A stretch of 64,000 nt of DNA from Nesterenkonia marinintestina (GTDB lineage: Bacteria > Actinomycetota > Actinomycetes > Actinomycetales > Micrococcaceae), in contig NZ_JAOEFD010000001.1 of the NCBI RefSeq assembly GCF_025420485.1, positions 310,001-374,000 of the forward strand, read 5' to 3'. Below, in pieces: positions 37,524 through 51,022 of the stretch. Made by a program: the position numbers and the translations under genes. Positions within the stretch are counted from its first letter, which is position 1. Each line of letters opens with the position of its first letter. Below the pieces are notes generated by a model. It did no database searches. It was not told the DNA's origin and worked only from the letters and a program-made list of their open reading frames with translations.

Positions 37524-38270
37524 GTGTTCTACTACGTCGCCAAGACCTTCGTCGTCGGACCCGTGGTCAACACAGCCTTCCGCCCCTGGGTCAAAGGGCT
37601 CGGCAACGTGCCCCAGGAGGGCGGCGCGATCTTGGCGTCGAACCACCTCTCCTTCTCCGACTCCGTGTTCCTGCCGGTGAAGGTGCCCCGCCCGGTGCGC
37701 TTCCTGGCGAAGAAGGACTACTTCGACAAGCAGGGGCCGACGGGATGGGTGCAGAAGGCCTTCTTCGACATCACAGGCCAGATCCCCATGGACCGCTCCG
37801 GGGGGAAGGCCAGCCAGGACTCGCTCGACGCCGGCGAGCAGGCGCTGCGCGACGGCGAGGTCCTCGGCATCTACCCCGAAGGCACCCGCTCCCCCGACGG
37901 CCGGCTGTATCGGGGCAAGCTCGGAGTCGCCCGGCTGGCGCTGCGGACCCGAGTTCCGGTGATCCCCGTGGCCATGATCGGCACCGACAAGGTGCAGCCC
38001 ATCGGCAAGAAGGTGCCGAACATCCGCCGCGTCGGCGTGATCTTCGGCGAGCCGATGACCTTCGAGGGCTACTACGACAACTCTGAGGACCGATTCGCCC
38101 AGCGCGCGGTGACGGACGAGATCATGTATCAGATCATGCGGCTCTCCGGTCAGGAGTATGTGGACACCTACGCCGCCGACGAGAAGCGCAGACTCGAGCG
38201 GGAGACCGCCGAACGACGGATCAGCGACCGGGACGCGGGGAACCGTGGACGCGGTGAACGGAATAGCTGA
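37524..38270 (+). CDS. 1-acyl-sn-glycerol-3-phosphate acyltransferase (PlsC family)
   Basis: Makes phosphatidic acid in phospholipid synthesis, at the inner membrane face. The 248-residue product has the HX4D catalytic motif in ASNHLSFSD, the glycerol-phosphate site in VLGIYPEGTRSPDGRLYRGKLG, and VIPVAMIGTDKVQP. The GTG at 37524 gives the usual membrane-associated N-terminus (VFYYVAKTFVVGPVVN). Its ribosome site (AAGGA, about 13 bases away) is distant. The C-terminal 30 residues are charged, and the last 50 bp overlap the convergent membrane-protein gene. Confidence 0.9.
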   Translation: MFYYVAKTFVVGPVVNTAFRPWVKGLGNVPQEGGAILASNHLSFSDSVFLPVKVPRPVRFLAKKDYFDKQGPTGWVQKAFFDITGQIPMDRSGGKASQDSLDAGEQALRDGEVLGIYPEGTRSPDGRLYRGKLGVARLALRTRVPVIPVAMIGTDKVQPIGKKVPNIRRVGVIFGEPMTFEGYYDNSEDRFAQRAVTDEIMYQIMRLSGQEYVDTYAADEKRRLERETAERRISDRDAGNRGRGERNS

Positions 38271-38778
38271 GCAGGCCCAGGGCCAACAGGCCTGAGAGCA
38301 TCAGCGTGACGGCGGTGGTCCAACCGCCGGGCAACCACCAGGCGTCGTCCAGCGGCCACCAGGAGGGCACGTCTCGCCACAGCCCCCAGGTGATCCCCCA
38401 CGCGATGAGTGCCAGTCCTCCGAGCGCGCTGAGCGCGATACGCGGTGGGGTCCGGACTCCGTGGACGGCTCCACGGATGGCCTTCAGCTTGACCGGCTCC
38501 ATCATCCGGCGTGCCCAGGCGTAGCGGAGGCCGAGGAGCGCCAGTCCTGCGGCCAGCATCAGCAGCCCCGGGCCCGGCAGCACCAGGGCCGCCGCCCCGA
38601 TCACGAGCAGCAGCCATCCGACGAACTCGAGGAGCCTGGCGCGCACCCATAGGGGGATCAGGCGCCGGTGTTCTCCGGTCTCCGAGTCTGCTCCGACTCC
38701 GCGCCCGGCGCCGGAGTGCGTCCCGGAGGGGCCTCCACCGCTGACCTGCGACGACGTCGCCCTCGTCCCTGCTTCCAT
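38221..38778 (-). CDS. PGPGW-family transmembrane protein
   Basis: The 185-residue product has a hydrophilic N-terminus of about 40 residues. A hydrophobic block then contains LVLPGPGLLMLAAGLALLGLRYAWARR, the pattern of the putative transmembrane PGPGW family (TIGR02611-like). Two further C-terminal hydrophobic segments follow (IALSALGGLALIAWGITWGLW and TTAVTLMLSGLLALGLLSYSV). The function of the family is unknown. The ATG at 38778 is chosen because the frame further upstream is low-complexity. The 3' end overlaps the convergent acyltransferase gene by 50 bp. Confidence 0.75.
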   Translation of the reverse strand: MEAGTRATSSQVSGGGPSGTHSGAGRGVGADSETGEHRRLIPLWVRARLLEFVGWLLLVIGAAALVLPGPGLLMLAAGLALLGLRYAWARRMMEPVKLKAIRGAVHGVRTPPRIALSALGGLALIAWGITWGLWRDVPSWWPLDDAWWLPGGWTTAVTLMLSGLLALGLLSYSVHRVHGSPRPGR

Positions 38779-38872
38779 GGCCCCGAGCGTCTCACCGGAA
38801 CCTGGGAGTTCGGTGGAGGGCGTCGGTCGATCCCGCACCCCGGTCCGGTCCCCGGTCCGAGGAGGGGGATCC

Positions 38873-40075
38873 CTACCGAGCGGTGCGCGTGAAGGAGGAG
38901 ATCCCGGTGATGTCGCGCCCCACGATGAGCGCCTGCATCGAATCGGTCCCTTCGTAGGTCGAGACGACCTCCATGTCGGTGAGATGCCTCGCCACATGGT
39001 TCTCCAGCAGCAGGCCGTTGCCGGCCATGATGTCGCGCGCCGTCCGGCACATCGACAGCGCCTTCCGGGAGGTCGTCATCTTCACCAGTGATGCCATGGC
39101 GGTGGTGAATTCGCCGCGCTCCTGCAGTTCGGCCATACGGGTGCACAGCAGCTGCATGGAGGTCAGGTCGGAGAGCATGCCGGCGAGGCGCTCCTGGACC
39201 AGCTGGTAGGAGGCGATGGGGGCGCCGAACTGCTCCCGCTCCGAGGCGTAGCGGGACGCCAGCTCGAACGCCGCCATGCCATGACCGACCGCCTCCCAGG
39301 ATGCTCCTCCGCGCGTGGCCGACAGCACCTTGTTGACGCCGGCGAAGCTCTCACACCCGGCGAGTCTGTTCTCCAGGGGAAGCCGCACGTCCTCGATGAC
39401 GATGTCCGCCTGATGGATGGACCGTTTGGCCATCTTGCCGCGGATGATCTCCGGGCGGAATCCGTCGGGGTACGTGCCGTCGTCCTCCTTCTCGACCACG
39501 AAGGCCTTGACCTGGGAGTCGGCCTCGTCGCGTGCGAAGACGACGATGACGTCGGCGGCATGGCCGTTGCCGATCCACCGCTTGCGGCCGCGCAGGATCC
39601 ACGAGTCGCCCACTCTGCGGGCCGACGTCTCCAAGGAGACCGAGTCTGAGCCGTGATCAGGTTCGGTGAGGCCGAACGCCCCCGTCTTCTCCAGGGCCGC
39701 CAATGCGGGCAGCCAGCGACTCCGCTGGTCCTCGTCCCCCAGCATGTAGATGCTCCCCATGCACAGGCTCGAATGGACTCCGACGAATGTGTTGATGGAC
39801 CCGTCGATCCGCCCCATCTCACGTGCTGCGATGCCCGCCGCCTGACGCGACAGGCCCGGGCAGCCGTAGCCCTCGATGAAGCCCCCGATGATGCCGAGGT
39901 TGCCGAGGCCGGGCAGCACGGGATCCGGAAACTCGGCTCGTTCCCAGTAGGAATTGATGATGGGCTCGACCTCGGTCAGGCCGAACTCGCGGACCCGATC
40001 GCGGAGGCGTCGGACGTCGTCGTCCAGGTCACTGTCTAGAAGGAAGTAGTCGGGATGTTCGATGACCGATGTCAT
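38873..40075 (-). CDS. Glutaryl-CoA-dehydrogenase-like acyl-CoA dehydrogenase, altered substrate site
   Basis: FAD enzyme that oxidises acyl-CoA at C2-C3. The 400-residue product aligns along its whole length with glutaryl-CoA dehydrogenases: FGLTEPDHGSDSVSLET (flavin site), RKRWIGNGHAADVIVV, RYASEREQFGAPIASYQL, and the catalytic base Glu375 in TYEGTDSMQALIVGR. Known glutaryl-CoA dehydrogenases have an Arg (mature human Arg94, in a G-Y-R-S context) that binds the distal carboxylate. Here the aligned segment is GSINTF and the residue is Asn95 (codon 39793-39791, AAC). A decarboxylating glutaryl-CoA reaction is therefore doubtful. It is the last gene of an operon with the thioesterase (4-nt overlap) and the CoA-transferase. 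Confidence 0.85.
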   Translation of the reverse strand: MTSVIEHPDYFLLDSDLDDDVRRLRDRVREFGLTEVEPIINSYWERAEFPDPVLPGLGNLGIIGGFIEGYGCPGLSRQAAGIAAREMGRIDGSINTFVGVHSSLCMGSIYMLGDEDQRSRWLPALAALEKTGAFGLTEPDHGSDSVSLETSARRVGDSWILRGRKRWIGNGHAADVIVVFARDEADSQVKAFVVEKEDDGTYPDGFRPEIIRGKMAKRSIHQADIVIEDVRLPLENRLAGCESFAGVNKVLSATRGGASWEAVGHGMAAFELASRYASEREQFGAPIASYQLVQERLAGMLSDLTSMQLLCTRMAELQERGEFTTAMASLVKMTTSRKALSMCRTARDIMAGNGLLLENHVARHLTDMEVVSTYEGTDSMQALIVGRDITGISSFTRTAR

Positions 40076-40524
40076 GAGTGTTCTCCACCTTCTGGTGTGT
40101 CAGCGTCGGAGTTCGGGGCAGGAACGGCATGGGCCTCGAGGACCGCTCTCAGGGAGTCCGTCATAGGTGTGGGACGACCGTCATCGGCAGAGAGGTTGAC
40201 GATGACGGCATCCGAGCGCAGGCAAAGAACTCCTCCTTGGAGCAGTTCGTGCCTGACGGTGAAGGAGGTGCGACCGATGGAGGTGATCCACGCGCGCCCG
40301 AGGACGTCCTCGCCGAAGTGCACCTCCCGGTCGAAGGTCACGTCCAGGGCGCGGACCACCCGTGGCCCCGAGGGCCCCGGAGGCTCTGCGCCCCAGGCCA
40401 CCATGGCTCGCAGGCGGACCTCCTCGATCAGGGTCATCAGACGCGCGTTGTTGACGTGTCCGTTGAGGTCCTGGTCAGACCATCGGACCTGGAGACCACA
40501 GGTGAATTCGGGCGATGTCGTCAC
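40072..40524 (-). CDS. Hotdog-fold acyl-CoA thioesterase (4-hydroxybenzoyl-CoA thioesterase family)
   Basis: The 150-residue product has the hotdog signature VRWSDQDLNGHVNNARLMTLIEEVR, with the catalytic Asp in the SDQD stretch (the second D corresponds to Asp17 of the Pseudomonas enzyme), and ALDVTFDREVHFGEDV. Such enzymes hydrolyse acyl-CoA to free CoA. GTG at 40524 overlaps the CoA-transferase stop as GTGA, and the gene overlaps the dehydrogenase by ATGA, so the three form one translational unit. A TTG at 40554 is an alternative start. Likely role: removal of dead-end or excess CoA esters in this pathway (inference). Confidence 0.85.
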   Translation of the reverse strand: MTTSPEFTCGLQVRWSDQDLNGHVNNARLMTLIEEVRLRAMVAWGAEPPGPSGPRVVRALDVTFDREVHFGEDVLGRAWITSIGRTSFTVRHELLQGGVLCLRSDAVIVNLSADDGRPTPMTDSLRAVLEAHAVPAPNSDADTPEGGEHS

Positions 40525-41711
40525 GAGATCCCCATCTTCTGCTGCCCGATCCAACGGAGGACGTCCTCCCTGTCCTGATCGAGTGCGGGGGGAGCCTTGT
40601 CATAGTGGACGGGCGTCCGACTGAACTCCACCGGGTGACGGATGAGGGGGACCTCCTCCTCGCCACGTCCCACCTGGACGACTGGATTGAGTCCGATGCT
40701 GTCAGCGAAGTCGACGCCTTCGTCGACTCCGAGGATCGGTGCACAGGGGATGCCCTCCGCCTGGAGGCGGCGGAACCATTCCTGTGCAGTCCCTCGAGTC
40801 AGGGCCTCCGTCATCTCTCGCCTCAGGAAGTCCCTGTGGGCATTCCGGTCGGCCATCGTTCGGAACCTCGGGTCCGCTCCGAGCCATGACCGGTCGATCA
40901 CCTGTGCGAGCCGTCGGAACTGCCCGTCGTTTCCGCAGCAGATCACGATCTCGCGGTCCGATGCGGCGAACGGCCCGTAGGGGAACAGGCTCGGGTGGTC
41001 GTTCCCCAGCCGCATCGGCACGTTTCCGCAGGCCGCATAGCCCGTGCTCTGGTTGACCAGACCTGAGAGCGCAGACGTCAGAAGATTGAGCTCAACACCC
41101 TGACCGAGTCCCGATGCTCGGCGTTCTATCAGGGCCCCGAGGATTCCGACCGCGGCGTGCAGGCCCGTGATGACGTCGAACATCGCGACACCCGCGCGCT
41201 GCGGGGGCCCCTCGGAGGACCCGGTCACCACCATGAGCCCGGACATGGCCTGTGCGAGCAGGTCATACCCCGGCATATCGTGCCCGCCCTGGGTGCCGAA
41301 CCCGGTGATCGAGACATGGATCAGTTCCGGCCATCGGGTCTCCGTCGACGATCGGTCCAGACCGAAGCGGGCCAGTCCCCCAGGCTTGAAGTTCTCGACC
41401 AGCACGTCAGAGCAGTCGATGATGTCGTACGCGGCCGCACGATCGGCATCGTCCTTCAGGTCGAGCACTATCGACTGCTTGTTCCGATTGCAGGAGAGGT
41501 AATAGGTGCTCACACCGTCCCTGTGCGGAGGCACCCACTGCCTCGAGTCATCACCGCTCGGGGCTTCCACCTTGATGACGGTCGCTCCCATGTCTGCCAA
41601 CAGCATGGTGGCGTAGGGCCCAGCGAGCACACGTGTGAAATCCGCGATGACGAGACCCGCGAGCGGTCCGTCACCACCGTTCGTCGTCTGAGGCGGCTCG
41701 GCGTCTGACAT
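40521..41711 (-). CDS. CaiB/BaiF family III CoA-transferase, resembling succinate-CoA:glutarate CoA-transferase
   Basis: Transfers CoA between carboxylic acids. The 396-residue product begins with LAGLVIADFTRVLAGPYATMLLADMGATVIKVEAP, then STYYLSCNRNKQSIVLDLKD, and ENFKPGGLARFGL. It then has VSITGFGTQGGHDMPGYDLLAQAMSGLM and GVAMFDVITGLHAAVG, where Asp179 is the expected covalent catalytic residue. The stretch around STYYLSCNRNK is close to mitochondrial SUGCT and bacterial glutarate CoA-transferases, so a succinyl-CoA-dependent activation of a dicarboxylate is likely, without proof of the acid. The ATG at 41711 has GGAGGG 7 bases upstream. It is first in the operon and divergent from a LysR gene. 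Confidence 0.88.
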   Translation of the reverse strand: MSDAEPPQTTNGGDGPLAGLVIADFTRVLAGPYATMLLADMGATVIKVEAPSGDDSRQWVPPHRDGVSTYYLSCNRNKQSIVLDLKDDADRAAAYDIIDCSDVLVENFKPGGLARFGLDRSSTETRWPELIHVSITGFGTQGGHDMPGYDLLAQAMSGLMVVTGSSEGPPQRAGVAMFDVITGLHAAVGILGALIERRASGLGQGVELNLLTSALSGLVNQSTGYAACGNVPMRLGNDHPSLFPYGPFAASDREIVICCGNDGQFRRLAQVIDRSWLGADPRFRTMADRNAHRDFLRREMTEALTRGTAQEWFRRLQAEGIPCAPILGVDEGVDFADSIGLNPVVQVGRGEEEVPLIRHPVEFSRTPVHYDKAPPALDQDREDVLRWIGQQKMGIS

Positions 41712-41739
41712 CTCCAGCCCTCCGGTGCTGACCTGTGGG

Positions 41740-41801
41740 TTGACACAGATCACATAACCACCTGAATTATGCCCTGTCCAATACCTAATCAGATGTATAT
41801 T
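41740..41801. promoter_or_regulatory. Divergent promoter region with candidate LysR operator
   Basis: On the minus strand TTGGAC (41781-41776), an 18-bp spacer and TTATGT (41757-41752) can drive the CoA-transferase operon. On the plus strand TTGACA (41740-41745), with a weak AATTAT-like -10 near 41765, or TATATT (41796-41801), can drive the LysR gene. The inverted repeat CATAA (41753-41757), nine bases, TTATG (41767-41771) contains the T-N11-A pattern of LysR boxes and overlaps the -10 and spacer of the operon promoter. Confidence 0.42.
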
Positions 41802-41835
41802 GATGACGAGATCGACACAGTCAGTAGGGAGTTCC

Positions 41836-42747
41836 ATGGAGGTCCGCGAGGCGGAAGCCTTCCTCATGGTGGCCGATGAGCTGCACTTCGGGCGTGCGGC
41901 CGCGCGTCTCAATATGGCGCAGCCCCCATTGAGCCGGCTCATCCGCCAGCTGGAGAGGAAGCTGCGCACGAGGCTCTTCGACCGCAGCACGAGGAGCGTA
42001 GAGATGACGCCGGCCGGTTCGGCCCTCGTCGATCCTGCTAGGCGCCTGGTCGCCGTGTCACGCGAAGCGCAGGAGGCCGTATCGAGTGCCATGAACGGTG
42101 AGACCGGCACCGTGCACATCGGATTCGCCGGCGCTTCGATCAATCGGACGATCGGACAGCTGGCCCGAACGCTGCGTCGGACGCACCCCCGAGTGCTGCT
42201 CGAGTTCCACGGATCACAGTTCTCACCTGCAGGACTCGACCGTGTCTTGGACGGCACACTGGACCTCGCGTTCGGTCGGTGGGACTTCATCCCCGCCACG
42301 CTCGAGTCACACGTCATCGCGCTCGAAACTACCCTGGTCGTTCTGCCGGCTCGCCATCCCCTGGCCGACCAGCCAGAGGTGCGCGTCTCCGACCTCGCCC
42401 ACGAGAACTGGATCACGCTTCCCGGGGGATTCGGCTCCGCCCTGTACAACAGGCTGACCACCCTCACCCGGGGTGCCGGATTCGTTCCGAAGATCACCCA
42501 GACTGCGCCGGACTCGTGGACCCTGGTCATCCTCGTCGCCGCTGAGATGGGCTGCGCGCTGACATTGGACTCCGTCCGAGACAACGTCACCACTCCCGGA
42601 GTCGTCTTCCGGCCGGTCGCGGACCCCCAGGAGCCGCTCGAAGTGCGCATGATCTGGCGACGGGACGATCCGAGCATCGCACTCCGGAACGTCACCGAGG
42701 CGGCGAAGGCCCTGCTGCCGGACCCCCGCATTCAGGAATCGTCGTAG
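41836..42747 (+). CDS. LysR-family transcriptional regulator
   Basis: The 303-residue product has an N-terminal winged helix-turn-helix (EAEAFLMVADELHFGRAAARLNMAQPPLSRLIRQLERKLRTRLF split over about residues 5-50). The effector-binding domain follows, starting near GTVHIGFAGASINRTIGQL. The divergent position beside the CoA-transferase operon is the classic LysR arrangement, and LysR regulators (GcdR type) control glutarate operons in Pseudomonas. ATG at 41836 is chosen for the AGGGAG ribosome site; an upstream frame starts at 41800. The 3' end overlaps the convergent dehydrogenase gene by 16 bp. Confidence 0.9.
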   Translation: MEVREAEAFLMVADELHFGRAAARLNMAQPPLSRLIRQLERKLRTRLFDRSTRSVEMTPAGSALVDPARRLVAVSREAQEAVSSAMNGETGTVHIGFAGASINRTIGQLARTLRRTHPRVLLEFHGSQFSPAGLDRVLDGTLDLAFGRWDFIPATLESHVIALETTLVVLPARHPLADQPEVRVSDLAHENWITLPGGFGSALYNRLTTLTRGAGFVPKITQTAPDSWTLVILVAAEMGCALTLDSVRDNVTTPGVVFRPVADPQEPLEVRMIWRRDDPSIALRNVTEAAKALLPDPRIQESS

Positions 42748-43646
42748 GTGTACCACCCTCGCCCGGTCTTCCGGCCGAAATGACCGGCCTCATAGAGTCG
42801 TCGGACGGCCGGGTGCGGCAGGGCGCCTTCATCGCCGGTCTGTTCGAACTCGGCGAGACGGATCAAATGTACGACGTCGATGCCGACGAGGTCCATCAGT
42901 TCGAACGGGCCCATAGGATGCCGGAGGGCGGTGCGAGCCGCCCTGTCGATGTCCTCCACGTCGGCGACCCCGGCGTCGTGGAGTTCGAGTGCTTCTCGAC
43001 GGATCGCCCCGAGGATTCGGTTCGCGACGAATCCTGGGATCTCTCGGCGGAGCCGCACCCCCGACTTGCCCAATGACCGCACCAGCTCCATCGACGTATC
43101 GACGACGGTCTCCGCAGTGCCGTCATGCGGCACCACTTCGACACACTCCATCACCAGAGCAGGATTGAAGAAGTGCAGGTTCAGCACCCGATCGGGTCGG
43201 GTCGTGCTGTCTGCGAGCTGCGACGAGACGATGTTCGACGAATTGGTCGCCAGGATCGTCCTCCGGGGCGTCTCCCGATCGAGGTCCTCGAAGATCCGCC
43301 GCTTCACCTCCAACGACTCCGCCGCCGCTTCGATGACGAAGTCGCACTCCGACACCGCGGTCGCGCGGTCCGTCGAGAGTCGCAGCCGCTCCATGGCCCG
43401 ATCAACATCATCACGAGCTCTCCGGCCTCGGGAGACGTCTCGATCCATCCGTGACTGCAAGGCATCTCGGGCGCCGTCCAGCAGCTCGTCCGACAGGTCG
43501 ACGAGCGAGGTGCTGTATCCGGCCAGCGCACACACCATGGCGATCTGAGAGCCCATGACTCCGGCTCCCACGACAGCGATCTCTCGCACTTCTCCTGCCG
43601 GCCCTGAACGATGTTCTTCAGCGTGTTTCCGACCTGTCGATGTCAT
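42732..43646 (-). CDS. 3-hydroxyacyl-CoA dehydrogenase (Hbd type)
   Basis: NAD-dependent oxidation of 3-hydroxyacyl-CoA to 3-ketoacyl-CoA. The 304-residue monofunctional protein has the Rossmann loop IAVVGAGVMGSQIAMVCALAGY near residues 23-44, NSSNIVSSQLA, the catalytic His in LHFFNPALVMECVEVV, and PGFVANRILGAIRREAL. The C-terminal domain has PMGPFELMDLVGIDVV. It lies 6 bp after the enoyl-CoA hydratase gene, so the two steps are co-expressed. The size and domain layout match 3-hydroxybutyryl-CoA dehydrogenases rather than the fused FadB type. Confidence 0.92.
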   Translation of the reverse strand: MTSTGRKHAEEHRSGPAGEVREIAVVGAGVMGSQIAMVCALAGYSTSLVDLSDELLDGARDALQSRMDRDVSRGRRARDDVDRAMERLRLSTDRATAVSECDFVIEAAAESLEVKRRIFEDLDRETPRRTILATNSSNIVSSQLADSTTRPDRVLNLHFFNPALVMECVEVVPHDGTAETVVDTSMELVRSLGKSGVRLRREIPGFVANRILGAIRREALELHDAGVADVEDIDRAARTALRHPMGPFELMDLVGIDVVHLIRLAEFEQTGDEGALPHPAVRRLYEAGHFGRKTGRGWYTYDDS

Positions 43647-43652
43647 GGCAAC

Positions 43653-44480
43653 TCACTCCCCCGAACGGTCATGGTGGACGGACAGGAAGTCTGCTCGTCG
43701 CCCCTCCAGGAACGCGCTCGTCCCCTCAGACTTCTCGTCGGTGCTGTAGATCACCGACTGAGCCAACCGCTCCAGCAGCAGGCCCGTCTCCTGGTCGACG
43801 TCGAACCCGCGTCTGATGACTTCGGACGCGAGCTTCACGGCCAGGGGCCCCTTCGCCAGGATCCGAGTCGCTGCGGACTCGGCCGCTGTGATCAGGTCGT
43901 CGGAGGACACGATTTCGGTGACCAGCCCATAGGTGAGGGCCTCCTCACCGGAGACCCGCCTCCCCGTGAGGATCATGTCGGTCGCACGACCGATTCCGAC
44001 CATGCGGGCGAGCCGCTGTGTACCCCCTGCAGCGGGAATGATTCCGAGCCCGGTCTCCAGCAGCCCGAAGACCGCGTCCGTCGAAGCGATCCGCACGTCA
44101 CACGCCAGAGCAAGTTCACATCCGCCCCCGAACGCATAGCCGTTGACGGCCGCGATCGTCGGCTTCGGGAAGGCCTCGATCCTCGAATACAGCCTCTGCA
44201 TCCTCGCCGTGAGCCCGTCGACGGGTCGACGGCGCTCCAGCTCCCGGATGTCCGCACCGGCGACGAAAGCCTTGCTCCCGGCTCCCGTGAAGATCAGGAG
44301 CCGGACTGAGTCATCGTGCTCGAATGCGTCCAACAGCTCTGCCAGACGTGAGAGCACCTCCGCATTCATGGCGTTGTGAACCTGCGGGCGGTTGATCGTC
44401 ACCACCACGATGCCGTCTCGGTTCGCTGTGAGGACCGGGTCCTCAGACTGCTGCACGTCCGCGTCAGCGATTCCGGTCAT
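43653..44480 (-). CDS. Enoyl-CoA hydratase (crotonase family)
   Basis: Hydrates 2-enoyl-CoA to 3-hydroxyacyl-CoA. The 275-residue product has the oxyanion-hole stretch KAFVAGADIRELE, AVNGYAFGGGCELALACD with the first catalytic Glu, and FGLLETGLGIIPAAGGTQRLARMVG with the second Glu, so full hydratase activity is expected. The ATG at 44480 lies 30 bp after the TRAP permease stop, placing it in the transporter operon. Confidence 0.92.
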   Translation of the reverse strand: MTGIADADVQQSEDPVLTANRDGIVVVTINRPQVHNAMNAEVLSRLAELLDAFEHDDSVRLLIFTGAGSKAFVAGADIRELERRRPVDGLTARMQRLYSRIEAFPKPTIAAVNGYAFGGGCELALACDVRIASTDAVFGLLETGLGIIPAAGGTQRLARMVGIGRATDMILTGRRVSGEEALTYGLVTEIVSSDDLITAAESAATRILAKGPLAVKLASEVIRRGFDVDQETGLLLERLAQSVIYSTDEKSEGTSAFLEGRRADFLSVHHDRSGE

Positions 44481-44510
44481 GGGTCGCTCCTCTCGATAGT
44501 CCGTCGACTG

Positions 44511-46541
44511 TCACGATGATGTGTCGGCAGCCTGGGCCGCGGTGCGTCCGCGGAAGAGACTGATCGCGGCCGTCGCGAGGACGACGCCCAGACCGATCAG
44601 CGTCCACGTGGTGCTGGGGAGGAACATGACGAATCCGCCCACGGCCAACGGAACCCGGAGGACAAGCGTCAGGCGCACCTCGGCCAGGCTCAACCACCCG
44701 CTGAACGCACAGGCGAGGGCGAAGACCGCCACGATGCTCGCCAGACCGTTGACGAGGACCTCCCCCGCAGGCGCCTGAGCCACCAGGGCGGGATTGAGCG
44801 CGAACCCGAACGGGACGACGTACTTGACCAGCCCAAGACGCATGGCCTCAACACATGTCGCCATCGCCGGCGCCTTGGAGATCCCGGCGGCTGCGAACGC
44901 GGCCAGTCCGACGGGAGGCGTGATGTAGGAGACGGAGGCCCAATAGATGACGAACAGGTGCGCGGCGATGGGATCGACCCCGAGCTCGATCACGGCTGGA
45001 GCCATCACGATCGCAAGGAAGACGTAGGCCGCCGAGATGGTGAGTCCCATGCCGAGGACGAAGCAGGCGAACGCTCCGGCGATGAGCATCAGCACCACGT
45101 TCTCCCCGACCAGGGCGACGAGATCGCGAGACAGGGAGAGCGCGACGCCGGTCGCAGACAAGCCTCCCAGAATCAGGCCGACACCGGCGATGATGCCGAT
45201 GATCTGAGCCAGGGTCTTTCCCACGTCGAGGGTCATCTCGGTCCATTCCTTCGGTCCGAATCTGACGCTCGGTCGGACCAGAGCGATGACGAGGAGGACC
45301 GCGACCACCCAGAACGGCACCTGAGACTCATTCCCCGTGGTGAAGAGCATGAGAGTCAGAAGGACCAAGCAGCTGAGATAGGGCCAACCGGCGAGGAGTG
45401 CAGAGCCGACCCGGGGCAGCAGGTCCCGTGGCGACCCCCTGAGCCCTCTCATCGCGGCGTAGCCGTCGATCTGGATGAAGATCCCCAGGAAGTACAGGAT
45501 GGCAGGAATTGTGGCCGCGATCAGAATCTCGGTGTAGGAGACACCGACGAATGACACCATGAGGAACGCGGCCGTCCCCATGATCGGTGGGGTGATCGAA
45601 CCCCCGGACGAGGCCGTCGCTTCAACCGCCCCGGCCGTCTTTCGGCTGAAGCCGCTCTTGATCATGGCTGGAATGGTCATCGGACCGGTCGTCAGGACAT
45701 TGGAGACCGCCGATCCGCTCATCATGCCCATAGTGGCCGAGCTCGCCACGGAGACCTTGGCCGACCCCCCACGAAACCGTCCGAACAGGGCGGTCGAGAG
45801 TTCATGGAAGAATTGGGCTCCACCCGTGTGCTGGAGCACGACGCCGAAGAGGAGGAAGCCGACGAGGATGCTTCCTGCGGTCTGCAGGGGCAGACCCAGG
45901 ATCGACTCGTTGCCCATGGCATGCACCTGGGCCAGCGTGGCGACGTCGTACTGGATACCCTCGAGGAATCCGACGGGCAGCTGTCCGGCGGTCACAGGAT
46001 AGATCGACACCAGGAAGGCCAGCACTGCGACGATCCAGCCCGCACCGCGGCGCAGCACCTCGATGATGAGGCCCCAGAGGACGAAGCTCACGACTGTGGC
46101 GAAGGTCGGAGCGACGAAGGCCCAACCGTACTCGTGGATGTCGACGCCGTGGAAGGCGAAGTACGCGGCACACGACACGAACAGAACGATGAGCACCACG
46201 TCGTACCAGGGGAGGCCTCTCCGCACGCCTCCTGTCGCCGCTGTCGCAGATCGTCTGGCCGGCATCACGATGAAGAGGATCGGGATGAAGAGCATGATGA
46301 GCAGATAGAGGAACGTGTTCGTCAGCAGTGCGATGCCGAAGAGGTTCCAGAAGAAGACCTGATTCATCGTCAGGAGCAGTCCCAGCAGCGTGAGACCGAT
46401 CACCGCCCATCGCCAGAACATCGTGAGCCTGGGATTCTCCGACTCCTCCGCCATCAGAGACTGGTCCGGGACGGTGTCGGACGTGTCGGTGCCGTCGGGA
46501 GCGTCGGGCCGCAGTCCGTCGGTCAGGGGCGTGGTACTCAT
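44511..46541 (-). CDS. TRAP transporter permease, fused 4TM/12TM (TAXI type)
   Basis: Ion-driven secondary uptake of an organic acid. The 676-residue protein has about 17 transmembrane segments and combines the small DctQ-like and large DctM-like subunits, as is usual for TAXI TRAP systems. The DctM part has SVASSATMGMMSGSAVSNVLTTGPMTIPAMIKSGFSRKTAGAVEATASSGGSITPPIMGTAAFLM (in pieces, about 270-335). The second half has VSYITPPVGLAAFAAAGI. These are the substrate-gate repeats. The ATG at 46541 overlaps the binding-protein stop by 4 nt. Physical linkage to hydratase and dehydrogenase genes suggests that the imported acid is degraded through CoA thioesters. Confidence 0.92.
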   Translation of the reverse strand: MSTTPLTDGLRPDAPDGTDTSDTVPDQSLMAEESENPRLTMFWRWAVIGLTLLGLLLTMNQVFFWNLFGIALLTNTFLYLLIMLFIPILFIVMPARRSATAATGGVRRGLPWYDVVLIVLFVSCAAYFAFHGVDIHEYGWAFVAPTFATVVSFVLWGLIIEVLRRGAGWIVAVLAFLVSIYPVTAGQLPVGFLEGIQYDVATLAQVHAMGNESILGLPLQTAGSILVGFLLFGVVLQHTGGAQFFHELSTALFGRFRGGSAKVSVASSATMGMMSGSAVSNVLTTGPMTIPAMIKSGFSRKTAGAVEATASSGGSITPPIMGTAAFLMVSFVGVSYTEILIAATIPAILYFLGIFIQIDGYAAMRGLRGSPRDLLPRVGSALLAGWPYLSCLVLLTLMLFTTGNESQVPFWVVAVLLVIALVRPSVRFGPKEWTEMTLDVGKTLAQIIGIIAGVGLILGGLSATGVALSLSRDLVALVGENVVLMLIAGAFACFVLGMGLTISAAYVFLAIVMAPAVIELGVDPIAAHLFVIYWASVSYITPPVGLAAFAAAGISKAPAMATCVEAMRLGLVKYVVPFGFALNPALVAQAPAGEVLVNGLASIVAVFALACAFSGWLSLAEVRLTLVLRVPLAVGGFVMFLPSTTWTLIGLGVVLATAAISLFRGRTAAQAADTSS

Positions 46542-47743
46542 CGGTCGCTCTCCCCACCATTCGATCCGTCATCATCGTCGTCTACTTCGGGCAGGTCGGG
46601 CAGATTGTCCTGCTTCCACGAATACCACTGTCGGGCGACGTCGTCGTCGGTCGCATGATCATCCCAGAAGTCCGGCCAGGCTGATCTCATCAGCTGCTCA
46701 CGCTCCAGCAGAGCATCCTGACGCGCCTGGAGGCTCTCCGACCACCGGTCCGCACGTTCGAAGAACCGCACGGCGCCTTCGTGGAATGGCACGACCATAG
46801 GTGTCATGAGCACTTCGTCCCGATGGAAGTTGTGCGCATCAGGGGTCGCGTCCTTGAAGCTCCCGTAGTTCTCATCGATGTGCTCGAGAAGCGTGAGCAC
46901 CTCATCGGCGGAGCGCTCTTCGAGAGTCGTGAGAGGGATCGAGTACTGCATGTTGACCACGGACTCACCCTCGTCCAGACCTGCGCCGTCGGTGAACGAA
47001 CCGGGTCTGACCATCGGGGCCAGCGTCTCCCAGGTCTCGTAGCGGGACTCGTCGTCGCCGCCGAGGTCGAGCCAGCGGACAGGATACTGACTTGCGAGCT
47101 CCTCGATGTTCGCCCCTACGACGTTCTGATAGAGCGCATCGAGCTGCCCCGATCTCAGTGCATCGATCTGTTCGGCGTAGCTGATGTCGACGAGGTCGAC
47201 GTCGTCAGACGTCAGCCCTCCATAGTTGAGGATCGCTTCGAGCTTGCGGTTCATGGACGTGCTGGCGACGAGTCGGGGATACCGTCGTCCCTCCAGATCC
47301 TCGACCGTCTCGATTCCGCTGTCTTCGAGGACGAGCACCCCATAGTTGCCGGGAGGGGCGAAGATCTGACGGATCGGCTGGGGTCCCCACTGTCCAGAGG
47401 CGAACTCATCATCACCCTCGAATGCATAGAAGTACTCGTCACCTGCCCTCGCGTACTGGGCCGTCTGACTCATGACGGGAGCCAGTCTTCCTATTCCAGT
47501 GTCGCTGGTCATCAGCCGAACCTGCACACCGGACTGTTGGGTCATGGCATTGGCCACAGCCGCCAGGTCGTTGTAGGTGCCGGTCCCCACCCCGTACGTC
47601 GACCACACCATCTGCTCCGGGAGCCCATCCGACCGCACAGACGGCTGACCGCACCCAGCCAGCAGACCGGCCGCCGCCACCGAACCGACGCCGGCCAGGA
47701 ATGATCGCCGGCTGCAGGGCAGGGTCATCGTCGCCTCCATCAT
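46538..47743 (-). CDS. TAXI-family TRAP solute-binding lipoprotein
   Basis: Extracytoplasmic receptor for the fused TRAP permease. The 401-residue product begins with a twin-arginine-type lipoprotein signal: CSRRSFLAGVGSVAAAGLLAGC, with RR at 12-13 and the lipidated Cys31. The mature part carries TAXI features (YGVGTGTYNDLAAVANAMTQQSGVQVRL; binding segment around YAEQIDALRSGQLDALYQ). The end is very acidic. ATG at 47743 has AGGAG 8 bases upstream; the ATG at 47728 is also preceded by GGAGG. It is the first gene of the transport/beta-oxidation operon. The substrate cannot be predicted from sequence. Confidence 0.9.
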   Translation of the reverse strand: MMEATMTLPCSRRSFLAGVGSVAAAGLLAGCGQPSVRSDGLPEQMVWSTYGVGTGTYNDLAAVANAMTQQSGVQVRLMTSDTGIGRLAPVMSQTAQYARAGDEYFYAFEGDDEFASGQWGPQPIRQIFAPPGNYGVLVLEDSGIETVEDLEGRRYPRLVASTSMNRKLEAILNYGGLTSDDVDLVDISYAEQIDALRSGQLDALYQNVVGANIEELASQYPVRWLDLGGDDESRYETWETLAPMVRPGSFTDGAGLDEGESVVNMQYSIPLTTLEERSADEVLTLLEHIDENYGSFKDATPDAHNFHRDEVLMTPMVVPFHEGAVRFFERADRWSESLQARQDALLEREQLMRSAWPDFWDDHATDDDVARQWYSWKQDNLPDLPEVDDDDDGSNGGESDR

Positions 47744-48010
47744 CAGAACTCTCCTGTGCTGACTCCGAACGTGAGCCGCATCACAGGTTCGGATGGGAGT
47801 CAGTCAACCGGTCATACATTCACAGCACCAGCCCTCCGGGCCTTTGATACCTCCAACGCAATAATCCGACATCACCTGCACAATGGCCGACTGCCGTCGA
47901 CCACGCCTGTTGCCTCTGGACATCCGCCCCTGCGACGCTGACCATCACTGCGTACCGACGGCGGCCCGTGCGGACCGGTCGGTCCCTTCGACGTGCAGAG
48001 GAGCGGCTCG
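47744..48010. promoter_or_regulatory. Divergent control region between TAXI operon and acyl-CoA synthetase
   Basis: 267 bp between divergent starts, visibly richer in A+T than the surrounding genes. GACTCCGAAC (47761-47770) is matched by GTTC (47787-47790) plus GGAGTC (47796-47801), an inverted repeat interrupted by five bases in the right arm, which could bind a regulator. No regulator gene lies directly here; the LysR protein encoded 6 kb away is one candidate. Confidence 0.4.
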
Positions 48011-49549
48011 GTGTTCAATCTCGCAATGGTGCTGACCGAATCTGCGGCGAGACACCCCGAGAGACCCGCCGTATTGGACGACGGGCGGGCGTGGACCTTC
48101 TCCGAGTTGGACAGGCGCGCAGACGCCTTCGCCGACTCCCTGCAGTCCGACGGGATTCGCCCGGGAGACGCCGTCGGCCTACAGATGGCGAACGGAGCTG
48201 CATTCGTCATCGCGTACTACGGGATCCTCAGAGCAGGATCGGTCGTCGTACCGGTGAACCCGTTGGCAGTGTCCCGCGAGATCTCACACATCATGAAGTC
48301 GGCCGAACTCCGATCGATGGTCACCGAATCCGAGAACCTCGAGACGGTCCTCCGAGCCGACCCTCAGGGACGCCTCCCCACCATGTTCGTCGCGGGACCG
48401 GCAGACCCACCGACCCGACGCATCAGGTCCTTCGACGAGGCTTCCGCGAAACCTGCCTCGTCCGAGCATCGCCTGCCCGTGATGCGGCCTCTGGACAGTA
48501 CCGCGGCCATCATCTTCACCTCCGGCACGACAGGGGCGCCGAAGGCCGCGGAGCTCACTCACGGAAATCTCCTCAGCAGCTGCACGCATGTCACCAGGGA
48601 CGCGGATGTGCGCGAGGCGGATGTCACGCTGGCCTGCATCCCCCTCTTCCACGTCTTCGGCATGACCGGACTTATGAACACCTCGGTGGCCCAAGGCCTC
48701 CCGCTCGTCACACTGCGTCGATTCTCCCCGGACGACGTGTTCCGACTGATCGAGGAGCATTCCGTCACCCGCACCTCATTCGTGCCGACGATGATCGCCG
48801 AGCTCATCTCTGCCGACCCGCCGGACCGCGACCTCTCCTCTCTGCGCCGAATCACATCGGGCGGCGCACCGCTGGACGTGCAGCACGTGGCAGGGACGGA
48901 GGAGCTGTTCCCTGCGGCCACCCTGCTGGAAGGCTACGGCGCCTCCGAGACGACCTCGTCGATATGCGTCAACCGGGATCGCGGCACTCGGCGTCTGGGG
49001 TCGGTCGGGACGGCGACCTGGGGAACCCAGATCCGCGTCGTCGACGACGACGGTCGTGCGGTCCCGAAGGGAGCCTCCGACATCGGTGAGGTGCAGGTGC
49101 GGGGTCTCACCGTCTTCAGCGGATACCGGGGCGACCCCGAAGCGACGGCCGCCGCCTTCGACGGGGACTGGCTCCGGACCGGCGACCTCGGTCACGTGGA
49201 CTCCGACGGATACCTGTTCCTGTCCGGTCGCCGAAGTGAGCTGATCATCCGTGGCGGGTACAACGTCTATCCGGCAGAGGTGGAGGTCGTCCTGACCAGT
49301 CATCCATCCGTCGCCGAAGCGGCTGTGATCGGTGTCCCCGATGTGCGACTCGGTCAGGAGATAGTCGCCTTCATCGTCACCAGCGCTCAGGTGGAGGCTC
49401 AGGAGCTGGACGCGTTCGCGCGCGAACGTCTCTCCCGCTACAAGTGTCCGCGCGAGATCCGATTCGTCGACGACCTCCCCAAGACTGCGTCTGGAAAGAT
49501 CCGACGTGCAGTTCTGTCGCGTGATGGGAACACCTCGTCTGAGGTCTGA
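48011..49549 (+). CDS. AMP-forming acyl-CoA synthetase
   Basis: Activates a carboxylic acid to its CoA thioester. The 512-residue product has the P-loop IIFTSGTTGAPKAAELTHGN, CIPLFHVFGMTGLM, ITSGGAPLDVQH, LLEGYGASETTSS, WLRTGDLGH, and SGRRSELIIRGGYNVYPAEVE. The A10 lysine lies in LPKTASGKIRR. It resembles medium-chain/short-chain fatty acid and aryl-acid ligases. The GTG at 48011 is preferred because GAGGAG lies 7 bases upstream; an in-frame GTG at 47993 is an alternative. It is divergent from the TAXI TRAP operon and probably activates the imported acid, in parallel with or alternative to the CoA-transferase. Confidence 0.9.
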   Translation: MFNLAMVLTESAARHPERPAVLDDGRAWTFSELDRRADAFADSLQSDGIRPGDAVGLQMANGAAFVIAYYGILRAGSVVVPVNPLAVSREISHIMKSAELRSMVTESENLETVLRADPQGRLPTMFVAGPADPPTRRIRSFDEASAKPASSEHRLPVMRPLDSTAAIIFTSGTTGAPKAAELTHGNLLSSCTHVTRDADVREADVTLACIPLFHVFGMTGLMNTSVAQGLPLVTLRRFSPDDVFRLIEEHSVTRTSFVPTMIAELISADPPDRDLSSLRRITSGGAPLDVQHVAGTEELFPAATLLEGYGASETTSSICVNRDRGTRRLGSVGTATWGTQIRVVDDDGRAVPKGASDIGEVQVRGLTVFSGYRGDPEATAAAFDGDWLRTGDLGHVDSDGYLFLSGRRSELIIRGGYNVYPAEVEVVLTSHPSVAEAAVIGVPDVRLGQEIVAFIVTSAQVEAQELDAFARERLSRYKCPREIRFVDDLPKTASGKIRRAVLSRDGNTSSEV

Positions 49550-49603
49550 ACGAGGGGGCTGACACGGCCCCGGACGTCCCGGCAGAGATCGGACGGAGAG
49601 AAA

Positions 49604-49635
49604 GAAGCACCCCGGACCGTGGTCCGGGGTGCTTC
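49604..49635. terminator. Rho-independent bidirectional terminator
   Basis: GAAGCACCCCGGACC (49604-49618) pairs with GGTCCGGGGTGCTTC (49621-49635) in a 15-bp arm hairpin. On the minus strand the stem is followed by TTTCTCTCC, a U-rich end suited to the tRNA transcript. On the plus strand it lies 55 bp after the acyl-CoA synthetase stop, so it can serve both. Confidence 0.7.
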
Positions 49636-49659
49636 TGAGGTCCTCAGGCAGGACAGCTG

Positions 49660-49743
49660 TGCGCGAGGGGGGACTTGAACCCCCACGCCCGTGAAGGCAC
49701 TGGCACCTGAAGCCAGCGCGTCTACCTATTCCGCCACTCGCGC
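49660..49743 (-). tRNA. tRNA-Leu (anticodon CAG)
   Basis: On the minus strand the acceptor stem GCGCGAG (49743-49737) pairs with CTCGCGC (49667-49661), with discriminator A at 49660. The D arm is followed by the anticodon stem CTGGC/GCCAG with loop TTCAGGT, which gives anticodon CAG. A long variable arm (about TGCCTTCACGGGCG) marks a class II tRNA, and the T arm reads GGGGGTTCAAGTCCCCC. The CCA end is not encoded. It marks the boundary between the acyl-CoA island and the housekeeping genes that follow. Confidence 0.93.
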
Positions 49744-49845: not shown

Positions 49846-50889
49846 TCAGTCGTCCGCCTCCTCCGGATCCTCCGGTTCGACGTCCTCGCCGACGACGACG
49901 TCGGCGGAGTCCATCAGCTCCTGGGGCACCTCCAAGCCCATCTGCTCCGCCGCGTCCGGATTGAGGTACAGCTGGATGTCGTCGAGCGTCTCCACCGGTG
50001 TCTGTCCCGGGTCCTCGTCGTCCTGCAGGATGCGCAGCGCCATCTCTCCGGCCTGGCGCCCCAAGGCCTCATAGTCCACAGCGTAGGAGCCGATGGTCCC
50101 CCGAGCCACCGAATCTCCGTCGGCGGAGAAGACCGGGATCTGCTGATCGCGCCCGAAGCTGATCACCGACTCGAGGCCGGAGACGACCACATTGTCCGTG
50201 GGGATCCAGATCGCGTCGACCCCGGAGAGCGACTCCACTCCCTGCTGGACTTCCGCGGAGTTGGTGATGGTCGAGGTCTCGATCTCCACGTCGAGCTCCT
50301 CGGCGGCTTCGCGCGCCATCTCCACCTGGACCTCCGAGTTCACCTCACCCGAGGCGTAGAGGACACCGATCGACTCCACGTCGGGATCCGCCTCGGTGAT
50401 CAGCCCGAGCTGCTCCTCCACCGGATTCAGATCGGAGAGCCCGGTGACGTTCTCACCCGGCTCCTCCCAGGAGTCGACGAGCCCGGCCTCCTCAGGCTCG
50501 GTGACGGCCAAGAACACCACAGGAAGGTCTTCGCCCTGCGTCGCGGTGACGATCTGCTGCGACTGCGAGGTCGCGATCGTGGCCACCAGATCGTGGCCCC
50601 CTTCGGCCAGCTGCCCGGCCACCGTGGTCTCGGTGGCGGCGTCGCCCTGAGCGTTGCGCTCGGTCCACTCGACATCGACCTCCGCCTCCTCGAAGGCCTG
50701 CCGGAACCCCTCCCGTGCGGCGTCGAGCGACGGGTGCTCCACAGGCTGTGCGATGCCGATCGAATACGGGTCCTCCTCAGTACCCCGGTCATCACCCCCG
50801 GCGCCCTCCCCGCAGGACGTCAGCACGAGCGCGGCGAGCGCCGTCGGAACCAAGAATCGCAGGGCGGGCGGAACGAGACGGTCGGACAC
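49846..50889 (-). CDS. Orphan ABC substrate-binding lipoprotein (TrpX / ABC_sub_bind type)
   Basis: The 347-residue product has a lipoprotein signal (LVPTALAALVLTSC, lipidated Cys26) and a two-lobed periplasmic-binding fold like the ABC_sub_bind (PF04392, TrpX) group: YSIGIAQPVEHPSLDAAREGF, DLVATIATSQSQQIV, PVVFLAVTEPEEAGLV, NVTGLSDLNPVEEQLGLI, IWIPTDNVVVSGLESV. Members bind tryptophan or tyrosine-like solutes. The mature protein is highly acidic. No permease or ATPase gene follows; downstream is only the tRNA. It may work with a system elsewhere in the genome or be a remnant. GTG at 50889 has AAGGG 8 bases upstream. Confidence 0.87.
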   Translation of the reverse strand: MSDRLVPPALRFLVPTALAALVLTSCGEGAGGDDRGTEEDPYSIGIAQPVEHPSLDAAREGFRQAFEEAEVDVEWTERNAQGDAATETTVAGQLAEGGHDLVATIATSQSQQIVTATQGEDLPVVFLAVTEPEEAGLVDSWEEPGENVTGLSDLNPVEEQLGLITEADPDVESIGVLYASGEVNSEVQVEMAREAAEELDVEIETSTITNSAEVQQGVESLSGVDAIWIPTDNVVVSGLESVISFGRDQQIPVFSADGDSVARGTIGSYAVDYEALGRQAGEMALRILQDDEDPGQTPVETLDDIQLYLNPDAAEQMGLEVPQELMDSADVVVGEDVEPEDPEEADD

Positions 50890-51022
50890 TGGGGTTCCCT
50901 TCCTCAGGCGGATGCGAGCGGCTCCGGGCGAGGCGCCGACGGAGTGTCGACCATTCTTCCACGCGGCCCCCGAGCTCCGAGGCCGCGCGGCGGGCGGCGA
51001 CGCCGATAGAATCACCTCCGTC

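What the first reader, a model, noticed from the sequence alone, without database searches (positions are those of the whole stretch)
38873..49549. Self-contained acyl-CoA catabolic island with its own TRAP-TAXI importer
Nine genes between housekeeping blocks encode uptake (TAXI receptor plus fused TRAP permease), two activation routes (family III CoA-transferase and AMP-forming ligase), an acyl-CoA dehydrogenase, a hydratase, a hydroxyacyl-CoA dehydrogenase, a thioesterase and a LysR regulator. The set covers import to 3-ketoacyl-CoA; only a thiolase is missing. The gene content and divergent promoters indicate one functional unit for an unknown carboxylic acid. The island ends next to a tRNA-Leu gene, a common integration site, although no integrase or repeat of the tRNA end was seen.
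Basis: partly seen in the sequence, partly recalled or inferred. Interest (0 to 1): 0.72.

Follow-up and report, generated by a model that had tools for sequence, protein, structure and literature searches.

The report
Mobile dicarboxylate (probably adipate) catabolic island
A nine-gene DNA island inserted beside a tRNA gene in a Nesterenkonia bacterium most likely imports a short two-acid molecule, probably adipic acid (a nylon building block), and prepares it for breakdown; it matters mainly because it suggests a job for a poorly understood class of importer.

Summary
In detail: nine intact genes (TAXI receptor, fused TRAP permease, hydratase, hydroxyacyl-CoA dehydrogenase, LysR, family III CoA-transferase, thioesterase, acyl-CoA dehydrogenase, AMP-forming ligase) fill 38873-49549 of a Nesterenkonia chromosome. 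It is a genomic island: GC 64.6% against 69.8%; the PlsC/tRNA-Leu site is free of it in 15 of 15 relatives where it could be read; a cousin island sits on a mobilizable Kocuria flava plasmid between transposase genes. Fifteen of 36 other loci keep the gene order. The "missing" thiolase is PcaF-like, linked in 7 of 12 relatives and unlinked here. Substrate: relatives' islands also carry glutaryl-CoA dehydrogenase (14 of 37 loci); one relative joins orthologues of the enzymes to a cyclohexanone monooxygenase (the route to adipate) without the importer. This genome has a separate glutarate-type cluster whose dehydrogenase keeps Arg94; the island's enzyme does not. Best reading: a transferable C5-C7 dicarboxylate module, here probably for adipate, yielding 3-oxoadipyl-CoA, then acetyl-CoA plus succinyl-CoA, which could recharge the CoA-transferase. 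Substrate is inferred, not shown; no enzyme passes a curated dicarboxylate cut-off. The parts are known kinds; I did not find the combination in my searches.

The parts
38873..40075 (-). acyl-CoA dehydrogenase, 'type 1' (N at the position of glutaryl-CoA dehydrogenase Arg94)
   Evidence: Pfam ACAD domains; best solved relative Arabidopsis ACX4 2ix5 328.6 bits, then glutaryl-CoA dehydrogenase 2eba 272.4; motif GSINTF vs SGLRT
40072..40524 (-). 4HBT-family thioesterase; the ORF is open from 40554 (TTG), but a GTG at 40524 overlaps the CaiB stop (GTGA) and is the likelier start (inference)
   Evidence: Pfam 4HBT_2 55.8 bits; start read
40521..41717 (-). family III (CaiB-type) CoA-transferase; likely ATG at 41711
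   Evidence: Pfam CoA_transf_3 376.4 bits; best NCBIfam model succinate-glutarate CoA-transferase, 306.8 bits, below its cut-off of 750
41766..41782 (-). conserved ATTGG-N7-ATAAT core (T-N11-A) in the LysR/CaiB gap; the K. carniphila copy (L092) reads ATTAG-N7-CTAAT
   Evidence: aligned upstream sequences read by eye; place checked
41836..42747 (+). LysR-family regulator, divergent from the CoA-transferase, 3' end overlapping the HAD gene by 16 bp
   Evidence: Pfam HTH_1 and LysR_substrate
42732..43646 (-). 3-hydroxyacyl-CoA dehydrogenase (HAD)
   Evidence: Pfam 3HCDH_N/3HCDH
43653..44480 (-). enoyl-CoA hydratase (ECH)
   Evidence: Pfam ECH_1 217.8 bits; third-best NCBIfam model PaaF 2,3-dehydroadipyl-CoA hydratase 252.1 bits, below cut-off 371
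44511..46541 (-). TRAP transporter fused permease
   Evidence: TIGR02123 581.2 bits, above cut-off 320.65
46538..47743 (-). TAXI solute receptor; N-terminus reads CSRRSFLAG...LLAGC (twin-arginine and lipobox look; motifs recalled)
   Evidence: TIGR02122 211 bits, above cut-off 84.35; solved relatives 1us4/1us5, 8u79
47847..47865 (-). candidate LysR operator ATTATTGC-N6-GGTAT between TAXI and ligase
   Evidence: motif trained on 22 relatives without the window; score 22.5, 0 of 1500 genome segments and 0 of 200 shuffles as high; place checked
48011..49549 (+). AMP-forming acyl-CoA ligase, divergent from TAXI
   Evidence: Pfam AMP-binding 300.9 bits; at this place in 5 of 36 other loci, all of the same genus
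49603..49636 (.). perfect 16-bp hairpin between ligase and tRNA-Leu (terminator-like)
   Evidence: inverted repeat I11
49659..49743 (-). tRNA-Leu(CAG), edge of the insertion site
   Evidence: ARAGORN
37524..38270 (+). PlsC-like acyltransferase, other edge of the site in relatives
   Evidence: next to tRNA-Leu without the island in 15 of 19 fetched relatives

Best explanation
A horizontally acquired catabolic island for a short aliphatic dicarboxylate, most likely adipate. Inferred steps: the TAXI receptor captures the diacid and the TRAP permease imports it; the family III CoA-transferase (or the AMP-forming ligase as a starter) makes adipyl-CoA; the type-1 dehydrogenase makes 2,3-dehydroadipyl-CoA; hydratase and hydroxyacyl-CoA dehydrogenase make 3-oxoadipyl-CoA; a PcaF-like thiolase encoded elsewhere in the genome splits it into acetyl-CoA and succinyl-CoA, and succinyl-CoA can serve as CoA donor for the next turn. 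The thioesterase is a release valve for CoA. LysR senses the acid or its CoA ester and drives both divergent promoters. Shown: gene content, order, foreign composition, empty site, conservation, a candidate operator, linkage to GCDH and PcaF-like thiolase in several relatives and to cyclohexanone monooxygenase in one. Inferred: substrate, CoA donor, every enzyme activity, regulation.
For: Dicarboxylate: glutaryl-CoA dehydrogenase (65-78% identical to this genome's C5 copy, R at the Arg94 position) lies in or beside the island in 14 of 37 loci. The window genome also has a separate glutarate-type cluster at C5 (TAXI, TRAP 37%, GCDH-like, LysR 51%, CaiB 53%), so the island looks like a diverged sister of a glutarate module. 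Adipate: in G027 the dehydrogenase (79%), CoA-transferase (64%), HAD (63-67%), LysR (60%) and a PcaF-like thiolase (75%) are interleaved with an aldehyde dehydrogenase and a cyclohexanone monooxygenase (768.6 bits to 6er9; best hit not named CHMO 583.3), and the TRAP orthologue is absent, as it could be if adipate is made inside the cell. CHMO-like genes (54% or more to that of G027) occur in 3 of the 12 relatives with the type-1 dehydrogenase (G001, G027, G032) and in 0 of the other 45 (Fisher p 0.0075, kinship ignored). BVMO-like and ADH genes, with a hydrolase, flank islands in K. flava plasmid 1 and Corynebacterium 122RC1. All four thiolases scanned score best to 3-oxoadipyl-CoA thiolase models (517-532 bits to TIGR02430). 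The dehydrogenase has N where GCDH has Arg94, so it is probably not a decarboxylating glutaryl-CoA enzyme. Island.
Against: No enzyme passes a curated equivalog cut-off for a dicarboxylate enzyme: CaiB 306.8 of 750, PaaF-type hydratase 252.1 of 371, PcaF 532.1 of 597. The dehydrogenase's nearest solved relative is Arabidopsis ACX4 (a short-chain monocarboxylate enzyme, recalled), and I identified no residue that would bind a distal carboxylate. CaiB scores higher to formyl-CoA transferase-like and YfdE structures than to human SUGCT (258, 252 against 223 bits). Physical linkage to CHMO is one genome; the window genome has no CHMO, and in G001 and G032 the CHMO-like genes are on other contigs than the dehydrogenase. 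No lactonase was recognised in the G027 stretch. The thiolase of the window genome also occurs in 14 of 19 genus relatives without the type-1 dehydrogenase, so it is not dedicated. No known adipyl-CoA dehydrogenase sequence could be compared. A TAXI mutant of Psychrobacter was affected on acetate, butyrate and fumarate (PMC5812351, passages), so TAXI systems are not only for diacids. The window's CaiB-side gap lacks the strong operator (score 5.1, shuffle fraction 0.27).
Confidence: 0.55

Rival explanations
1. Same kind of island but for an odd-chain diacid (pimelate or glutarate): the type-1 dehydrogenase shortens pimelyl-CoA to glutaryl-CoA, which GCDH then decarboxylates.
For: GCDH is in or beside the island in 14 of 37 loci and on C5 in this genome.
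Against: G027 joins the type-1 set to CHMO, a C6 route, without GCDH in the fetched stretch; the window island and 12 of the 15 other loci with the full block show no GCDH in the fetched stretch; the PcaF-like thiolase favours a C6 3-oxo diacid.
Confidence: 0.2
2. An island for a short- or medium-chain monocarboxylate (for example valerate or hexanoate), using ordinary beta-oxidation.
For: Dehydrogenase nearest to ACX4 and the Staphylococcus FadE model; the unlinked thiolase of this genome lies beside a TIGR00366-type permease (388 of 575.75 bits); a TAXI mutant of Psychrobacter was affected on acetate and butyrate (PMC5812351, passages).
Against: GCDH linkage, CHMO linkage, PcaF-like thiolases.
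Confidence: 0.17
3. An aromatic diacid (phthalate) island: TAXI-TRAP plus succinyl-CoA:phthalate CoA-transferase is a known pair in denitrifiers.
For: TAXI-TRAP uptake of phthalate and a succinyl-CoA-dependent transferase are described in the same pathway (PMC13040137, passages; PMC6362003, passages).
Against: No UbiD-type decarboxylase or ring-attacking enzyme among the nine genes; the enzymes here are beta-oxidation enzymes.
Confidence: 0.03
4. A chance neighbourhood of unrelated beta-oxidation genes inherited with the chromosome.
For: Such genes are common in Actinomycetes (general knowledge).
Against: Conserved order in 15 of 36 other loci, site free of the island in 15 of 15 readable relatives, low GC, plasmid-borne relative.
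Confidence: 0.02

Closest known systems
gcdR-gcdH-CoA-transferase glutarate pathway of Pseudomonas putida (PP_0158, PP_0159)
   Same: LysR regulator with a CoA-transferase and a GCDH-clade dehydrogenase; diacid activated by CoA transfer (PMC6667623 and PMC10870600, passages).
   Different: The dehydrogenase here lacks the Arg94 position and sits with hydratase, HAD and a TAXI-TRAP importer; the glutarate-type cluster of this genome is elsewhere.
dca adipate beta-oxidation genes (Acinetobacter baylyi dcaAKIJP)
   Same: Self-contained activation and beta-oxidation of adipate (PMC12543098 and PMC10870600, passages).
   Different: dca uses a two-subunit transferase and other transport genes (recalled); no TAXI-TRAP; sequences could not be compared here.
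TAXI-TRAP phthalate uptake with succinyl-CoA:phthalate CoA-transferase
   Same: TAXI receptor plus fused permease close to catabolic genes for a diacid activated by CoA transfer (PMC13040137, passages).
   Different: Aromatic substrate and decarboxylase; here aliphatic-type beta-oxidation genes.

Membership tests
TAXI-TRAP transporter | TAXI receptor above the family cut-off | tested here: met
   TIGR02122 211 bits, cut-off 84.35
TAXI-TRAP transporter | fused DctQM permease next to the receptor | tested here: met
   TIGR02123 581.2 bits, cut-off 320.65; genes overlap by 4 bp
TAXI-TRAP transporter | receptor binds and permease moves a substrate | not testable with these tools
   needs binding and uptake assays
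Glutarate (gcd) catabolic module | LysR gene with a family III CoA-transferase and a GCDH-clade dehydrogenase | tested here: met
Glutarate (gcd) catabolic module | Arg94 of decarboxylating glutaryl-CoA dehydrogenase | tested here: not met
   N in the window and in the type-1 relatives aligned (A in one); R in the C5 copy and in the island-borne GCDHs; the Tyr-Glu pair is kept in the window (TYEGT)
Glutarate (gcd) catabolic module | CoA-transferase above NF052585 cut-off | tested here: not met
   306.8 of 750 bits; the C5 paralogue also fails, 354.3
Adipate beta-oxidation set | activation enzyme, acyl-CoA dehydrogenase, hydratase, hydroxyacyl-CoA dehydrogenase together | tested here: met
Adipate beta-oxidation set | 3-oxoadipyl-CoA thiolase | tested here: inconclusive
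   best model of the unlinked thiolase, but 532.1 of 597 bits; linked in 7 of 12 relatives
Adipate beta-oxidation set | adipate as substrate | not testable with these tools
   only genomic linkage to CHMO in G027
Genomic island | empty site in relatives | tested here: met
   15 of 15 readable PlsC/tRNA-Leu sites lack it, 4 of 19 not readable
Genomic island | foreign composition | tested here: met
   0 of 80 windows as low in GC
Genomic island | integrase or attachment repeat | tested here: not met

The most novel reading that the evidence does not exclude
A plug-in diacid island of Actinomycetes: an ancestral glutarate module (TAXI-TRAP, LysR, family III CoA-transferase, GCDH) was duplicated; one copy lost the Arg94 site, gained hydratase and hydroxyacyl-CoA dehydrogenase, and became a mobile adipate module whose thiolytic product, succinyl-CoA, recharges its own activating enzyme. 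Its TAXI receptor would then be an aliphatic C5-C7 dicarboxylate receptor, and the importer is swapped out (MFS, or none) where the acid is made from cyclic ketones or reaches the cell another way.
Probability: 0.4. Interest if true: 0.62.

Novelty: new variant of a known kind. Interest (0 to 1): 0.48.

Why it matters
TAXI-TRAP systems were called a neglected group in 2018, with a glutamate/glutamine-binding structure and one growth phenotype as leads (PMC5812351, passages); phthalate uptake has since been reported (PMC13040137, passages). This locus offers a concrete, cheap-to-test aliphatic ligand set and a candidate enzyme for each step. Adipate is a monomer of nylon and of biodegradable polyesters, and Arthrobacter KI72, of the same family (recalled), is reported to make adipate from a nylon by-product (PMC9477822, passages), so a compact transferable importer-plus-oxidation cassette would be a useful alternative to dca genes.

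Tried and rejected
Glutarate as the direct substrate was my first hypothesis (best NCBIfam model of CaiB is the glutarate transferase, dehydrogenase in the GCDH clade); dropped as first choice because the Arg94 position is N and because a separate GCDH-type cluster exists on C5.

I first took the C33 thiolase as the orthologue of the island thiolase; one search showed that 14 of 19 genus relatives without the type-1 dehydrogenase have it at 80-88% (the other five had no hit at E 1e-100), so the island-linked copy is absent here.

A tRNA-end repeat and an integrase were sought and not found. The CaiB and HAD trees do not place the window copy (no supported set); only the TRAP tree does, with Corynebacterium copies at 100/99, not with the nearest species, and the window row is flagged there as a long branch whose place is unsure. 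The operator motif failed on its own shuffles at 0.05 in 9 of 24 TAXI upstream regions, fits 3 of its 22 training rows poorly (L085, L299, L303), and several training rows are close relatives.

Papers: 10 searches of the held library, listings only; passages read in nine papers, none in full. No listed title or abstract start describes this cluster; that is no proof that it is unpublished. N. massiliensis is reported adipate-negative (PMC4148991, passages), but its island status was not determined.

Rows left out of the counts: seven named loci taken as duplicates of unnamed ones by equal contig length (L095, L096, L098, L099, L108, L112, L141); the more distant TRAP relatives (L113, L115-L120, L122-L125, L127-L140, L143-L154, L157, L159-L167); L298 (overlaps L299), L304, L305 (more distant dehydrogenase clusters) and L306 (overlaps L297).
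Full report
What is there. On the minus strand: TAXI receptor, fused TRAP permease, enoyl-CoA hydratase, 3-hydroxyacyl-CoA dehydrogenase, then (after the plus-strand LysR gene) family III CoA-transferase, 4HBT thioesterase, acyl-CoA dehydrogenase. The AMP-forming ligase is divergent from TAXI and ends 109 bp before tRNA-Leu(CAG). There are two divergent gaps: LysR/CaiB and TAXI/ligase.

Where it is. So the window is from a Nesterenkonia genome of 2.58 Mb; the species was not determined.

It is an island. Island GC is 0.646; 80 overlapping 10-kb windows from 398 kb of the same genome average 0.698 (sd 0.012), minimum 0.653. Gene by gene the shift is milder: eight of nine genes fall below the 20th percentile of background GC3, the dehydrogenase at the 34th (the background genes came from my own ORF picker, which favours high GC3). 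I fetched the PlsC/tRNA-Leu/HrpA surroundings of 19 relatives. In 15 of 19 PlsC and tRNA-Leu are neighbours and no island gene is matched between them; the gap between the matched parts is 87-238 bp in six and 0.8-6.6 kb in nine with other cargo; in the other four PlsC lies elsewhere or the contig ends. In the window the gap is 11.4 kb. The two relatives nearest by PlsC (G009 86%, G003 84%) share with the window an ABC-type binding protein between tRNA and HrpA but carry their own island on another contig or about 1.5 Mb away. In the TRAP tree the window copy groups with Corynebacterium copies (100/99), not with those two species, though it is a long branch; CaiB and HAD trees leave it unresolved. 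A related island lies on the mobilizable 113-kb plasmid of Kocuria flava, with an IS256 transposase gene on one side and another transposase gene on the other. No integrase or attachment repeat was found, so how it moved is unknown.

It is a unit, but a modular one. Of 57 relatives searched (58 genomes with the own one), 8 have the TRAP at 62-75% identity and no other exceeds 45%. Twelve have the type-1 dehydrogenase at 66% or more; 4 of these 12 (G013, G024, G027, G032) have it without that TRAP. Of 36 other loci examined, 15 keep the window's order of TAXI, TRAP, ECH, HAD, LysR, CaiB and dehydrogenase (thioesterase not always detected) and 5, all of the same genus, have the ligase in the window's place. 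A motif learned from the LysR/CaiB gaps of 22 relatives, the window held out, finds a high-scoring site in the window's TAXI/ligase gap (47847-47865, score 22.5; 0 of 1500 genome segments, 0 of 200 shuffles). It passes its own shuffles at 0.05 in 15 of 24 TAXI upstream regions, fails in 9, and the window's own CaiB side scores low. This suggests, without proving it, that LysR controls both promoters. The LysR/CaiB gap also keeps a T-N11-A core (by eye), the form of the GcdR site in P. putida (PMC6667623, passages).

The thiolase. Six of the 12 relatives (G001, G007, G012, G013, G018, G020) carry a thiolase directly beside the type-1 dehydrogenase and a seventh (G027) within 10 kb; the other five show none there at the cut-off used, E 1e-100. 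Three such thiolases from relatives (L086, L103, L107) and the unlinked window-genome copy at C33:43263-44558 all score best to 3-oxoadipyl-CoA thiolase models, 517-532 bits to TIGR02430 against a cut-off of 597. The C33 copy is widespread: 14 of 19 genus relatives without the type-1 dehydrogenase have it at 80-88%. The pathway could therefore close in this genome, with a non-dedicated enzyme.

Substrate. Four lines point to an aliphatic dicarboxylate. (1) Many relatives' islands hold a second dehydrogenase with the signature SGxRTxVSVQGSLAM, 65-78% identical to this genome's C5 GCDH-like protein: 14 of 37 loci. (2) This genome has, at C5:56.9-65.6 kb, a TAXI-TRAP, GCDH-like dehydrogenase, LysR (51%) and CaiB (53%) set, a paralogous glutarate-type cluster. 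(3) In G027 the island enzymes are interleaved with an aldehyde dehydrogenase (best model SSADH, below cut-off) and a monooxygenase that is clearly a cyclohexanone monooxygenase (768.6 bits to 6er9; the best hit not so named 583.3). Cyclohexanone oxidation leads through caprolactone and 6-hydroxyhexanoate to adipate (established knowledge). The importer is absent there, as it could be if adipate arises inside the cell. Across the 57 relatives, CHMO-like genes at 54% or more occur in 3 of the 12 with the type-1 dehydrogenase and in 0 of 45 without (one partial 37% hit in G051) (Fisher p 0.0075, kinship ignored); in G001 and G032 they lie on other contigs. (4) BVMO-like and alcohol dehydrogenase genes with a hydrolase (annotated in K. 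flava, by eye in the other) flank islands in K. flava and Corynebacterium 122RC1; the latter has GCDH and no type-1 dehydrogenase in view, K. flava both. Their BVMOs are not clearly CHMO (K. flava: 252.6 bits to a putative flavin-binding monooxygenase). The type-1 dehydrogenase has N (A in one relative) where GCDH has Arg94. In a solved GCDH the tyrosine that contacts the terminal carboxylate hydrogen-bonds this Arg (PMC3169403, passages); that the Arg itself holds the carboxylate is recalled. The tyrosine is kept in the window. So the island enzyme is probably a non-decarboxylating partner for another acid. Adipate is the best single guess; pimelate and monocarboxylates remain open.

Against this: no member passes a curated cut-off for a dicarboxylate enzyme, the dehydrogenase is nearest among solved proteins to plant ACX4, CaiB is nearer to formyl-CoA transferase-like structures than to SUGCT, the physical CHMO link is one genome, and the window genome has no CHMO.

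Mechanism, with status. Uptake by TAXI-TRAP: family shown, ligand inferred. Activation by CoA transfer, succinyl-CoA as donor: inferred from the family. Dehydrogenation, hydration, oxidation to 3-oxoadipyl-CoA: families shown, substrate inferred. Thiolysis to acetyl-CoA plus succinyl-CoA by the C33 enzyme: inferred; it would return the CoA donor. Ligase as an ATP-driven starter and thioesterase as a CoA release valve: inference only.

Known or new. TAXI-TRAP beside genes of a CoA-transferase pathway is known for phthalate (PMC13040137, passages); gcd and dca pathways are known for glutarate and adipate. Not seen in my searches is a mobile actinomycete island joining a TAXI-TRAP importer to aliphatic diacid beta-oxidation. 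I file it as a new variant of a known kind.

Noticed in passing
window 38270-49659 and L278-L292: The PlsC/tRNA-Leu gap is a variable spot in the genus: xylanase-like gene in G009, G003, G008, G013, rhodanese and YeeE-like genes in G019, G012, G022, other single genes in G010 and G006, under 240 bp in six (gene names by eye; the second G012 gene was not picked cleanly).
   Followed up: partly
G000:C5:56900-65600 (L175): Second TAXI-TRAP cluster with an APC-type permease (by eye), GCDH-like dehydrogenase, LysR and CaiB: probable glutarate cluster of the same genome.
   Followed up: partly
window 49846-51024: ABC-type binding protein (TrpX model 252.6 of 390 bits) between tRNA-Leu and HrpA; at this place seen only in G009 and G003 of 19 sites (one site, G008, cut by the contig end); a second copy lies on C33 near the unlinked thiolase.
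   Followed up: partly
L111, L114, L118, L124, L136-L139, L146, L147, L152, L153, L159: More distant TRAP relatives (51-59%) in Nocardioides, Amycolatopsis, Prauserella, Janibacter, Cryobacterium and others share loci with one or both of two CoA-transferase-subunit-like clusters (c11, c12; weak TIGR02428/02429 hits): probably another substrate.
   Followed up: no
L301 (G013): ECH, LysR, CaiB, thioesterase, dehydrogenase and thiolase occur with an MFS-type gene (by eye) instead of the TRAP, and a second, related dehydrogenase cluster with ligase and a non-fused TRAP lies next to it.
   Followed up: no
L102:13400-14400 (Kocuria atrinae): The type-1 dehydrogenase matches in four separate pieces, suggesting a broken gene or assembly errors.
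   Followed up: no
upstream of TAXI in L092, L096, L102 and others: A GTGTTGCGCATCAC-like element (Crp/GlxR-like by recall) precedes TAXI in several Kocuria copies (by eye).
   Followed up: no
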